Assembly: GCF_006740685.1 (NCBI RefSeq)
Contig: NZ_CP035425.1
Location: 163,687-227,686, forward strand
Source of the DNA: Candidatus Nitrosopumilus sp. SW
Lineage (GTDB): Archaea; Thermoproteota; Nitrososphaeria; Nitrososphaerales; Nitrosopumilaceae
Direction: 5' to 3'
Length of the DNA: 64,000 nucleotides
Every line of letters begins with the position of its first letter. Position 1 is the stretch's first letter. The notes under the pieces were generated by a model that saw only the letters and a list, made by a program, of their open reading frames with translations, did no database searches and was not told the origin of the DNA. This document shows, piece by piece, positions 48,940 through 63,504 of this stretch. Position numbers and translations under genes: made by a program.

Positions 48940-49380
48940 TCATTTGATTATGATTTTATATTTGCAAAGCAGGTCAAGAAATAACCTCAAATCTTTTTTG
49001 TGTTCCTTTTCTGACTCGTTTAGTTCCTTGAGCAAGTCTTTGTAGTCATAATCTGAATGAGATTCCATTGATTCCTGATTCACCTCGTTTATTGAGATCC
49101 TTTTTTGGATCTGTCGGATTTTGTTTTCTCCGTATTCTATTGTAGAATTAATCTTCTGCATATACTCATTAGGATTTTGCTTTGAATTATCCTGCTGTCC
49201 AGTCATTTTTGCAACTATCTCATGGTTTTGCAGAATCTGATTCCATTCCTCAAGTGTTAATGGATATTTTAGTATGCAAACTTCAGTTCCATCAGGTATG
49301 TCTTTGTGTATGTATTCTGTAGTATGTATTACTCTATCTTCACTCAATTTGGTTTTGTAAGATAACATATTTGATGTCAT
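48940..49380 (-). CDS. Micro-operon III gene H: helical 146-aa protein
   Basis: A charged protein with a beta-like N-terminal third (RVIHTTEYIHKDIPDGTEVCIL), then helices through to the C-terminus. The ATG at 49380 is chosen because ATGA overlaps the stop of the zinc-ribbon gene upstream, giving coupled translation; the frame is open to 49401. Its paralog at 62809-63249 is nearly identical over the C-terminal half and more diverged at the N-terminus. Function unknown. Confidence 0.8.
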   Translation of the reverse strand: MTSNMLSYKTKLSEDRVIHTTEYIHKDIPDGTEVCILKYPLTLEEWNQILQNHEIVAKMTGQQDNSKQNPNEYMQKINSTIEYGENKIRQIQKRISINEVNQESMESHSDYDYKDLLKELNESEKEHKKDLRLFLDLLCKYKIIIK

Positions 49381-49502
49381 TGGATAGATTCCTTCTTCCA
49401 CACATTACACGCAGGACATCTGTTTGTTAACTTGTTTGTTATTTTTTTTAAGAACACGTTACCACAATTCTCACAGGATCTCAAATCATCAATTGAAATC
49501 AT
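49377..49502 (-). CDS. Micro-operon III gene R: zinc ribbon, 41 aa
   Basis: CENCG and CPACN knuckles with NVFLKKITNKLTNR between. Two other copies lie at 63246 (41 aa) and 58851 (39 aa). The stop overlaps the next gene by 4 bases. Confidence 0.75.
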   Translation of the reverse strand: MISIDDLRSCENCGNVFLKKITNKLTNRCPACNVWKKESIQ

Positions 49503-49506
49503 GATC

Positions 49507-49635
49507 TTATGCCGTTTTTCCTGCAATGCGTGTTGCCTTTTCTTTCAAATGAGTCTTTTCATGAAGAAGTAGTTTTTGAATATCCCCTTCAGAGGAATCC
49601 CAAGTAAATTTGCAGTATTTGCAATGATATGTCAT
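49507..49635 (-). CDS. Micro-operon III gene Z: C2H2 peptide, 42 aa
   Basis: CKYC near the start, then HEKTH: a C2H2-type finger (C-x2-C-x16-H-x3-H). Homologous to 63376 and to the start of the 74-aa protein at 56315. It starts directly after the stop of gene P (TAAATG). Confidence 0.75.
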   Translation of the reverse strand: MTYHCKYCKFTWDSSEGDIQKLLLHEKTHLKEKATRIAGKTA

Positions 49636-54325: not shown

Positions 54326-55255
54326 TTAGTTGAGTGTTGAAAACAAATCTAACTTTATTTTGAATTCACGAATTCTGGTTCTTATTGAGACAGTGCTGGT
54401 GTTTGCAGCTTTTGCAACTTCTGTTTGTGATTTCAATTCTCCCGTAATCACACATGCTGCATAAATTACAGATGCCGCCAAAATTTCAGGATTTTTACCA
54501 ATGGTAATTCCTGCATCTTGGGCTGCAGTCAAAATTTGTGTTGCTTTACGACTTGTTTTTTCAGATAATTCAAGTTTACTGGTAATCTTGGAGATTGATT
54601 TTATTGGATTTGTTACATTTACTGCAAATTCCAATTCTTTAAACAACATGCGATAAGCCCGTGAGATTTCTTTTCTTTTAATCACAAATTGACTGGCAAT
54701 TTCTGTCAGAGATCTATCATGACCCAAATCTCTACATGCAGCATACAGACATGCCGCTGCAACAGATTTTACGGTTCTTCCACGAATGAGGTTTCTCTTT
54801 ATAGCCTTTCGATAAAACAGAGATGCCCGTTCAACTATGGTATCAGATAGGCCTAATTTTGATTGTACCTTGTCAAATTCAACAAGTGCAAACCTGAGAT
54901 TCTTGTCTGCAGAATTTTTTGTTTGGGATCTAGTATCCCATTTTCGCAATCTTCCAAATGCCTGAACAGTTTTTACAGATAGAGGCTTTCCTACTGAATC
55001 TCGATTCTGTGCACCTATTATTGTGTTCAGTCCCTTATCATGCATTTTAAGTGTCAAACCAGGACCAGTTCTAGCATTATCTGATGGACTCGAGATGAAT
55101 CGACGTTCCATTCCTCGGTATTCTGCATTTTCTGAAATTACAAAACCACAACTTGAACAAATAGTCTCTCCAAGTATTTCATCAGTTACAAATCTAGAGG
55201 CATGACAATAATTACAAAATATTTTTGTTTTTTTAATTGTCGTTGTTATTGTCAA
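54326..55255 (-). CDS. tfb: Transcription initiation factor B (TFB), paralog 1
   Basis: Links TBP at the TATA box with RNA polymerase. The 309-residue protein has an N-terminal zinc ribbon (Cys14, Cys17, Cys33 and Cys36), the B-finger region ERRFISSPSDN, LTLKMHDKGLNTIIG, and two cyclin-like repeats (AAACLYAACRDLG and AASVIYAACVITGE). The start is TTG. Thaumarchaea commonly carry several TFBs; a second lies at 61769. Confidence 0.95.
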   Translation of the reverse strand: MTITTTIKKTKIFCNYCHASRFVTDEILGETICSSCGFVISENAEYRGMERRFISSPSDNARTGPGLTLKMHDKGLNTIIGAQNRDSVGKPLSVKTVQAFGRLRKWDTRSQTKNSADKNLRFALVEFDKVQSKLGLSDTIVERASLFYRKAIKRNLIRGRTVKSVAAACLYAACRDLGHDRSLTEIASQFVIKRKEISRAYRMLFKELEFAVNVTNPIKSISKITSKLELSEKTSRKATQILTAAQDAGITIGKNPEILAASVIYAACVITGELKSQTEVAKAANTSTVSIRTRIREFKIKLDLFSTLN

Positions 55256-60321: not shown

Positions 60322-60603
60322 ATGGTACGTGTATCAAACATACTCACAGAATTATTAAATGAAATTAATTATGAATTGACAAACCAGATTTCTTTGGGGA
60401 AAAATGCAAAAATAGATGCAAGGAAACTTTTCCGGCAATCAGATTCTCTAAACAAGATTCTTCTAACCTCAGTCATCACTCAAGAAAACAAATCAATGTT
60501 ACAGGAATTCTCCAAGACATTACAAGATAGTTCAACAGTTAAGAGTCTCAGATATGAAAGACAAGATCTTGAAAGAGTACTTGCAAACCTTAACGATGTC
60601 TAA
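60322..60603 (+). CDS. Hypothetical helical protein, 93 aa
   Basis: A soluble protein with helices around ILTELLNEINYELTNQIS and ERQDLERVLANL. No cysteines or known motif. Confidence 0.6.
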   Translation: MVRVSNILTELLNEINYELTNQISLGKNAKIDARKLFRQSDSLNKILLTSVITQENKSMLQEFSKTLQDSSTVKSLRYERQDLERVLANLNDV

Positions 60604-61468: not shown

Positions 61469-61768
61469 GTAAAGGTCACAAATCAATCATACTCTTTCTT
61501 GGTTGCATCAGCTAGATTTGATTCAGAGATAGTCATTTTGAAGTAAAAAACAGACACAGGTAAGATGAAAATTGGATCACTATAAGAGGTATTCTTGGAA
61601 ATATTGTTCTTATTCTATAGAATCAGAATCTAATCTAAATAAATCCTAAAAAGATCAATTTATTCTAGAAAATTCAACAATATGTAATTAATCATGTTTT
61701 ATTTTGTATGTGTAGTAGCTAGAACTAATTTTGTCGGGGTTTAAAAGACAAGACATGCATTATAGTAC
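61469..61768. other. Region upstream of the TFB paralog 2 gene
   Basis: No coding frame is supported. A TTTAAAAG box lies about 27 bases before the ATG at 61769, so the TFB message is probably leaderless. Confidence 0.5.
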
Positions 61769-62662
61769 ATGTTACAAAAGTACCAAGTTCATAATTGCAA
61801 TTATAGTAAATTAATCACAGATACATTTAATGGAGAAATTTTTTGTTCAAATTGTGGCACAGTTATTGAAGAAAAATTAGATAATCATAATGAAACGCCT
61901 GTTCATAGTTTAGAAGATTTCATGAGTAAGAGTCAAGTTGGTTCAAAGCAATCCCTTTCAATACATGACAAAGGAATGTCATCTATCATTGGAAAAGATA
62001 AAGATGCTACAGGCAAATCATTAAGCTCATTTAACAAATCAAGATTTAATCGATTAAGAGTGTTAGATAGTAGAAGTAAAACAAGAAAATCATCAGCAAG
62101 AACCCTTGTAAAATCCCTAACTTTTCTAAATGGATTAAAGGGAAAGCTAGGAATATCTGAGAATACAATAGAAAGTACATCAGCACTATTTAGAAGGGCA
62201 CAAAAGCATCAATTGATTCGAGGAAGAAGTTCTAATGATTTAATGGCAGCGGCTTTGTATGTTTCATGCAGACAAACTATGACTCCTAGAAGTCTTGAGG
62301 ATATTTCTGAAACTGCCAACATTACAAAAAAACATCTACAAAAATCAGTCAGAGTTTTAATTAATGAATTTGAACTTGTATTGCCTCAATACAATATATC
62401 CTCATTTCTAACTAAATTATCCAATGATCTAGGATTTTCTGAGAAAACTAAACGTTATGCTTTGAACATATTATCAGATGTTGAAAAATGTGGTTCTGCT
62501 GCTGGAAAGAACCCTATTGGTCAGGCTGCTGCATCACTATATCTGGCATCTATGCTGATGGGAGAAAATATCTCACAGAAAATATTCTCAAAAATTTCAG
62601 GAGTATCTACTGTAACATTACGTAATAGAAAAAATACAATACAAAAATTATTGGAATTGTAA
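61769..62662 (+). CDS. tfb: Transcription initiation factor B (TFB), paralog 2, with altered zinc ribbon
   Basis: A 297-residue TFB with DKGMSSIIG and two cyclin-like repeats (AAALYVSCRQT and AAASLYLASMLMGE). The zinc ribbon has lost one ligand: the first knuckle reads CNYS (Cys10, Ser13) where paralog 1 has CNYC. The second knuckle CSNC (Cys26, Cys29) is intact. The arginine-rich finger is also weaker. It may still bind promoters, but with changed polymerase contact. It sits in copy 2 of the duplication. Confidence 0.9.
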   Translation: MLQKYQVHNCNYSKLITDTFNGEIFCSNCGTVIEEKLDNHNETPVHSLEDFMSKSQVGSKQSLSIHDKGMSSIIGKDKDATGKSLSSFNKSRFNRLRVLDSRSKTRKSSARTLVKSLTFLNGLKGKLGISENTIESTSALFRRAQKHQLIRGRSSNDLMAAALYVSCRQTMTPRSLEDISETANITKKHLQKSVRVLINEFELVLPQYNISSFLTKLSNDLGFSEKTKRYALNILSDVEKCGSAAGKNPIGQAAASLYLASMLMGENISQKIFSKISGVSTVTLRNRKNTIQKLLEL

Positions 62663-62808: not shown

Positions 62809-63249
62809 TCATTTGCTTGTGATTTTATATTTGCAAAGCAAGTCAAGAAATAACCTCAAATCTTTTTTGTGTTCCTTTTCTGACTCGTTTAGTTCCTTGA
62901 GCAAGTCTTTGTAGTCATAATCTGAATGAGATTCCATTGATTCCTGATTAACCTCATTTATTGAGATCCTTTTTTGGATCTGTCTGATTTTGTTTTCTCC
63001 ATATTCTATTGTAGAATTAATCTTCTGCATATACTCATTAGGATTTTGTTTTGAATTATCCAGATGTTCAGTTATTTTTGTAACTATTTCATGGTTTTTT
63101 AGAATCTGATTCCATTCCTCAAGTGTTAACGGACGTTTTAGTACACAAACTTCAGTTCCATCAGGGATGTCTTTGTGTATGAATTCTGTAGTATGTATTA
63201 CTCTCTCTTCACTCAATTTGGTTTTGTCAACAACCACATTTGATGTCAT
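62809..63249 (-). CDS. Micro-operon IV gene H: helical 146-aa protein
   Basis: Paralog of 48940. The last half (from NPNEYMQKINSTIEYGENK on) is nearly identical, while the N-terminal third differs at many positions. The ATG at 63249 overlaps the zinc-ribbon stop (ATGA); the frame is open to 63270. Confidence 0.8.
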   Translation of the reverse strand: MTSNVVVDKTKLSEERVIHTTEFIHKDIPDGTEVCVLKRPLTLEEWNQILKNHEIVTKITEHLDNSKQNPNEYMQKINSTIEYGENKIRQIQKRISINEVNQESMESHSDYDYKDLLKELNESEKEHKKDLRLFLDLLCKYKITSK

Positions 63250-63371
63250 TGGACAGATTCCTTCTTCCACACATTACACGCAGGACATCTATTTGTTAAC
63301 TTGGTTGCTATTTTTTTTAAGAATACGTTACCACAATTCTCACAGGATCTCAAATCATCATTTGCAATCAT
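63246..63371 (-). CDS. Micro-operon IV gene R: zinc ribbon, 41 aa
   Basis: Nearly identical to 49377, with CENCG and CPACN. Confidence 0.75.
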   Translation of the reverse strand: MIANDDLRSCENCGNVFLKKIATKLTNRCPACNVWKKESVQ

Positions 63372-63375
63372 GGTC

Positions 63376-63504
63376 TTATGTTGCTTTTCCTGCAATGGGT
63401 GTTGCCTTTTCTTTCAGATGAGTCTTTTCATGAAGAAGTAGTTTTTGAATATCCCCTTCAGCAGAATCCCAAGTAAATTTGCAGTGTTTGCAATGATATG
63501 TCAT
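63376..63504 (-). CDS. Micro-operon IV gene Z: C2H2 peptide, 42 aa
   Basis: CKHC...HEKTH; differs from 49507 at only a few positions. It starts directly after gene P. Confidence 0.75.
   Translation of the reverse strand: MTYHCKHCKFTWDSAEGDIQKLLLHEKTHLKEKATPIAGKAT

What the first reader, a model, noticed from the sequence alone, without database searches (positions are those of the whole stretch)
61769..62662. TFB paralog with a broken zinc knuckle inside the accessory region
Paralog 2 has CNYS where paralog 1 has CNYC, losing one of four zinc ligands, and a weaker B-finger. The core repeats look intact, so it may bind TBP-DNA but contact polymerase differently. Its position between micro-gene clusters suggests that it could control them.
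Basis: partly seen in the sequence, partly recalled or inferred. Interest (0 to 1): 0.6.

Follow-up and report, generated by a model that had tools for sequence, protein, structure and literature searches.

The report
Archaeal TFB with rebuilt zinc knuckle
This is a spare general transcription factor (TFB) of an ammonia-oxidising archaeon whose zinc-holding loop has not simply broken but has been rebuilt: the missing cysteine is a different one from the one first reported, a histidine next to it may have taken its place, and the change is kept in related species.

Summary
The gene is real: one of ten TFB paralogs in a Nitrosopumilus-type genome. Knuckles 1 and 2 of these TFBs are joined by C-x15-C; by that spacing Cys10 of "CNYS" is the second, retained cysteine and Ser13 lies outside the ligand sites. 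"CNYS/CNYC" is a chance string match. What is missing is the first cysteine. The sister TFB subfamily (47 of 48 distinct sequences) and four orthologues carry C5-x4-C10, nearly always with Asp8; the window gene and two orthologues, one from another genus, have Tyr5 and His8, under purifying selection (dN/dS about 0.13-0.16). So it is not a single-strain mutation. Other TFB paralogs here moved the same ligand elsewhere (HxxxC, CxH).

Best explanation: a functional alternative TFB in which His8 replaces the outer cysteine and the ribbon still docks RNA polymerase. His8 as ligand is inferred, not shown. The clade is patchy (6 of 95 genus genomes, one copy a pseudogene). Its micro-gene neighbourhood is clearly shared with one relative only, and the two neighbours tested occur widely without it, so control of micro-genes is unsupported. 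The sister TFB is probably N. maritimus Nmar_0013, reported as the dominant biofilm TFB.

The parts
61769..62662 (+). TFB paralog (297 aa), the focal gene
   Evidence: ORF; Pfam PF00382; NCBIfam PRK00423 match (230 bits, below the 384-bit cut-off); Foldseek best hits are TFIIB/TFB
61716..61747 (+). conserved promoter block TAGCTAGAACTAATTTTGTCGGGGTTTAAAAG with TATA-like TTTAAAAG about 25 nt before the ATG (probably leaderless transcript)
   Evidence: similar block upstream of 4 other orthologues (L055, L056, L058, L010) despite different flanks; only copy in the genome, none for the reversed control
61781..61783 (+). Tyr5 codon, site of the lost first zinc cysteine (Cys5 in sister TFBs and four orthologues)
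61790..61792 (+). His8 codon, proposed replacement ligand (Asp/Glu8 in relatives that keep Cys5 and Cys10, except L071)
   Evidence: ligand role inferred
61796..61798 (+).
   Evidence: C-x15-C spacing
61805..61807 (+).
61844..61855 (+). Knuckle 2, Cys26-x2-Cys29, intact
61874..62083 (+). B-reader/B-linker stretch without the PEWR motif; shared with the derived TFB subfamily
62084..62659 (+). two cyclin/TFIIB repeats; second helix-turn-helix STVTLRNR close to canonical TEVTIRNR
54326..55255 (-). paralog 1 (canonical CNYC zinc knuckle); other subfamily, 34% identical
60322..60603 (+). 93-aa micro-gene without Pfam match; also next to the TFB in L051

Best explanation
It is a functional alternative TFB from a derived subfamily found in Nitrosopumilus and near relatives. 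In this subfamily the first zinc knuckle was rebuilt from CxxC to CxxxxC. In the lineage of the window gene the outer ligand then changed again: Cys5 became Tyr and Asp8 became His, so that zinc is probably held by His8, Cys10, Cys26 and Cys29. The cyclin repeats bind TBP and BRE DNA, the ribbon docks on the RNA polymerase dock domain, and the altered reader and ribbon tune how well it recruits polymerase and opens promoters. It is thus a condition-specific replacement for the main TFB. Shown: register, conservation, phylogeny, purifying selection, predicted fold. Inferred: zinc held through His8, polymerase docking, condition-specific use.
For: Register: C-x15-C spacing and predicted ribbon strands. 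Sister clade: C5-x4-C10 in 47 of 48 distinct sequences, 46 with Asp8. Tyr5+His8 in the window gene, L055 and L251 (another genus) form one clade, 100/99 support, nested in Cys5 orthologues. Codons 5, 10, 13 and 29 differ synonymously among the three while the residues are kept; whole-gene dN/dS 0.13 (focal-L055) and 0.16 (focal-L251). All four rows of the CX4C superclade that miss Cys5 or Cys10 have His8, against 1 of 51 of the others (only about two independent events). Several TFB clades without the canonical first Cys carry His near Cys10 (-4, -2 or +2), while canonical rows have none at -6 to -1 (0 of 68). A conserved promoter block travels with the gene. The sister TFB lies at 12.8 kb, about the thirteenth gene, in a genome of 1,645,259 bases, which by length is N. 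maritimus SCM1 (length from memory), hence probably Nmar_0013, the highest expressed TFB in biofilms (PMC12448741).
Against: His8-x-Cys10 is not a standard zinc-knuckle spacing. Residues 1-12 of the model have low confidence (pLDDT below 50), and no metal or geometry was modelled. The Tyr5/His8 change is a single branch event. One orthologue (G018) is a pseudogene with two frameshifts and a TAG, so the gene is dispensable there. No expression data were found for this gene.
Confidence: 0.55

Rival explanations
1. The zinc ribbon has lost high-affinity zinc and polymerase docking. The protein still binds TBP-DNA and acts as a competitor (repressor) or as a helper of another TFB, comparable in role to Sulfolobus TFB3, which activates in trans with canonical TFB.
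For: Only three canonical ligands; canonical CxxC and PEWR both absent. A review states that the zinc ribbon recruits polymerase and that TFB3 works with canonical TFB in trans (PMC7289017).
Against: Cys10, Cys26, Cys29 and His8 are all kept in three species, and the ribbon codons are under at least as strong constraint as the core. A ribbon that no longer bound metal would be expected to lose its cysteines. TFB3 is a shortened protein (from memory); here both repeats are present.
Confidence: 0.22
2. Zinc is bound by the three cysteines plus water or a residue other than His8 (for instance Tyr5), and His8 is incidental.
For: Only one clean event for Tyr5/His8; L071 has His8 with both cysteines.
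Against: His8 goes with a missing Cys in two separate lineages.
Confidence: 0.12
3. The gene is decaying: a redundant accessory TFB on the way to loss, with the zinc ligand lost first.
For: Patchy in 6 of 95 genus genomes; broken in G018; TFB fragments elsewhere.
Against: dN/dS about 0.13-0.16, intact ORFs in six species, conserved promoter.
Confidence: 0.05
4. The TFB is a dedicated regulator of the surrounding micro-genes.
For: Adjacent in the window and in L051; the 93-aa gene is in 5 of the 6 genus genomes with this TFB; TFBs of other clades also sit next to such clusters in G110, G093, G098 and G099.
Against: The two micro-genes tested are widespread without it and most orthologues lie elsewhere. 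No shared promoter motif was found. Accessory genes cluster anyway.
Confidence: 0.06

Closest known systems
Archaeal TFB / eukaryotic TFIIB (Pyrococcus woesei TFB 1ais/1d3u; human TFIIB)
   Same: Predicted zinc ribbon fold, linker, two cyclin repeats, second helix-turn-helix for the BRE; 34% identity to 1ais/1d3u over the core
   Different: First knuckle lacks the outer Cys (CxxC in archaea, CxxH in human TFIIB, from memory); PEWR reader motif absent
Sister Nitrosopumilus TFB subfamily (own copy at G000:C1:814156; probably N. maritimus Nmar_0013, reported dominant TFB in biofilms, PMC12448741)
   Same: Sister clade with 99/97 support; same remodelled linker; four orthologues of the focal gene share its C-x4-C knuckle
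   Different: Window gene has Tyr5/His8 in place of Cys5/Asp8; about 45% identity; patchy, whereas the sister is found in 46 of 95 genomes
Multiple TFBs as global regulators in AOA and haloarchaea (PMC7554672, PMC2121645)
   Same: Expanded TFB set (AOA 4 to 11 copies reported in PMC7554672; 10 here)
   Different: The passages read describe copy number and expression, not knuckle remodelling
Sulfolobus TFB3 (PMC7289017)
   Same: Divergent TFB paralog with an altered polymerase-facing part
   Different: TFB3 lacks parts of the protein (from memory); here all domains are present

Membership tests
TFB/TFIIB | Two TFIIB (cyclin) repeats | tested here: met
   PF00382 twice, E 9.7e-31; Foldseek to 1ais/1d3u/7nvu
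TFB/TFIIB | N-terminal zinc ribbon with four Cys/His ligands | tested here: inconclusive
   Ribbon strands predicted, three Cys plus a candidate His8; PF08271 27.4 bits against cut-off 29
TFB/TFIIB | B-reader with PEWR-type motif (typical of canonical archaeal TFBs, not of all members) | tested here: not met
   Absent in the focal gene and in the derived subfamily
TFB/TFIIB | Binds TBP-DNA and recruits RNA polymerase | not testable with these tools
   needs biochemistry
Sulfolobus TFB3 type | Truncated TFB that acts in trans with canonical TFB | tested here: not met
   Full length, both repeats present; trans action not testable
Pseudogene | Disrupted frame or relaxed selection | tested here: not met
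   Intact frame, dN/dS about 0.13-0.16; only the G018 copy is broken

The most novel reading that the evidence does not exclude
In Nitrosopumilus-type archaea the outer zinc ligand of the TFB ribbon has been relocated or swapped several times among paralogs (C at -5, H at -4, H at -2, H at +2 relative to the retained Cys), producing a set of TFBs with different zinc sites and so different polymerase docking strengths or metal/redox sensitivity: the cell chooses its promoter programme by which zinc-knuckle type it expresses.
Probability: 0.15. Interest if true: 0.65.

Novelty: new variant of a known kind. Interest (0 to 1): 0.4.

Why it matters
Ammonia-oxidising archaea carry many TFBs, and what distinguishes them functionally is largely unknown. 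Rebuilt zinc knuckles that are conserved within paralog clades point to the polymerase-docking ribbon as one place where TFBs specialise, and give exact residues to test. The sister TFB is probably the one reported to dominate in N. maritimus biofilms, so the question can be tested in a cultured organism.

Tried and rejected
2) Single-strain mutation or sequencing error: rejected, Tyr5/His8 shared by three genomes with synonymous codon differences. 3) Missed N-terminal extension carrying another Cys: rejected, in-frame stop two codons upstream. 4) Decay: dN/dS speaks against it. 5) Micro-gene regulon: conserved promoter block searched in the genome and its core in the window, found convincingly only at the TFB itself (the four other window matches with 2-3 mismatches are within chance); co-occurrence not specific. 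7) Two literature searches on TFB/TFIIB zinc-ribbon changes gave nothing directly on knuckle changes; two papers wanted (Turkarslan 2011, Feng 2018) are not held.

Full report
What is there. The window belongs to a single-contig genome of 1,499,620 bases with ten TFB genes; relatives fetched by protein similarity are named Nitrosopumilus. The focal gene at 61769-62662 encodes a 297-aa TFB with two TFIIB repeats and an N-terminal zinc-ribbon-like stretch. Its start is secure: an in-frame stop lies two codons upstream, and a TATA-like TTTAAAAG lies about 25 nt before the ATG inside a block that is similar in four other orthologues.

In TFBs of this set the last cysteine of knuckle 1 and the first of knuckle 2 are separated by 15 residues. 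In the window protein that pair is C10 and C26. In paralog 1 it is the second C of CNYC (C16) and C32. Aligned properly, the window's C10 matches the second cysteine of CNYC, and Ser13 falls three residues past the knuckle. AlphaFold models of both proteins show the same three ribbon strands with a constant offset of six residues, which agrees with this register.

Where the first cysteine went. A tree built without the zinc ribbon columns puts the focal clade (seven members) next to a genus-wide TFB subfamily (99/97 support). Of 48 distinct sequences of that subfamily, 47 have C5-x4-C10 and 46 have Asp8 with both cysteines; 46 of 95 genomes have it at E 1e-90. Four focal orthologues (G096, G041, G091 and the broken G018 copy) keep C5-x4-C10 with Asp/Glu8. 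The window gene, L055/L051 (88% identical, a San Francisco Bay MAG) and L251 (80%, another genus of the family) have Tyr5 and His8 and form one clade nested inside the Cys5 group (100/99). The change was thus Cys5 to Tyr plus Asp8 to His on one branch. It has been kept over a whole-gene dS of about 0.5-0.9, with synonymous differences in codons 5, 10, 13 and 29. Whole-gene dN/dS is about 0.13-0.16.

Is His8 a ligand? It is not shown. The evidence is comparative. In the CX4C superclade every row that lacks Cys5 or Cys10 has His8 (window trio; L064, where Cys10 is Asp and C5-x2-H8 remains), against 1 of 51 of the rest. This rests on only about two independent events. More broadly, several TFB paralog clades in the genus that lack the canonical first Cys have a His near C10: HxxxC in the clade of the own copy at 1428488, and CxH in L143, L150, L158 and L147. 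Canonical TFBs have no His at the six positions before C10 (0 of 68). A few divergent paralogs (L119, L121, L125) have no obvious substitute, so plain loss also happens. In that census 17 of 146 rows had no anchor and were left out, nearly all visibly canonical CxxC, and a few anchored rows (L024, L046, L128) are out of register and not counted as canonical.

Function. The intact core and a recognition helix (STVTLRNR) close to the canonical TEVTIRNR suggest ordinary TBP and BRE binding (inference). The ribbon of TFB recruits RNA polymerase through the dock domain (PMC7289017). The PEWR reader motif is missing, but so it is in the derived subfamily. The sister TFB sits as about the thirteenth gene at 12.8 kb in a genome of 1,645,259 bases. 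That length is, from memory, N. maritimus SCM1, so the sister is probably Nmar_0013, which became the highest expressed TFB in biofilms (PMC12448741). A remodelled knuckle is therefore compatible with a highly expressed TFB. I conclude that the window gene is most likely a working alternative TFB with a rebuilt zinc site.

Micro-genes. The gene does lie among micro-genes, and L051 keeps several of them next to it. G122 has only scattered, weaker homologues. The other orthologues sit among unrelated genes (G096 has one weak hit). Homologues of the 124-aa neighbour are in 71 of 95 genomes and of the 93-aa neighbour strongly in 16. Clusters of these micro-genes lie next to TFBs of other clades in G110, G093, G098 and at a contig end in G099, which may mean no more than shared accessory islands. 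The promoter block of the TFB occurs nowhere else in the genome. Control of the micro-genes is unsupported.

Distribution and dispensability. Orthologues are in 6 of 95 genus genomes and in one further genome among 250 of the family (that search's strict threshold would miss broken copies). The G018 copy has two frameshifts and a stop. The gene is accessory.

Noticed in passing
window 48964-49635 and 62809-63504: The micro-gene cassette 62809/63246/63376 (153-aa protein plus two small cysteine-rich proteins) has a second copy 13 kb away, 86 to 93% identical in protein.
   Followed up: partly
G096 (for example L101, L105, L143, L147): This relative carries about 21 TFB matches including fragments, more than the 4 to 11 reported for AOA (PMC7554672); contamination 4%, so some may be foreign.
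   Followed up: no
L010/L049 (G018:C6:67447-68312): The orthologue of the focal TFB is a pseudogene with two frameshifts and one TAG.
   Followed up: yes
L044 (G000:C1:1428488) and relatives: A second TFB clade has a conserved HxxxC first knuckle in its members; other paralogs show CxH.
   Followed up: partly
L188, L190, L192, L184: Micro-gene clusters homologous to those of the window lie within about 2 kb of TFB paralogs of other clades (paralog 1 orthologues in G110 and G093).
   Followed up: partly
window 61716-61747: A 32-bp promoter block travels with the focal TFB across unrelated flanks and is unique in its genome; it may hold a binding site for an unknown regulator.
   Followed up: partly
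L252:14856-15083: A TFB remnant (residues 221-297, 62% identical to the focal TFB) lies 5.6 kb from the intact orthologue in G122.
   Followed up: no
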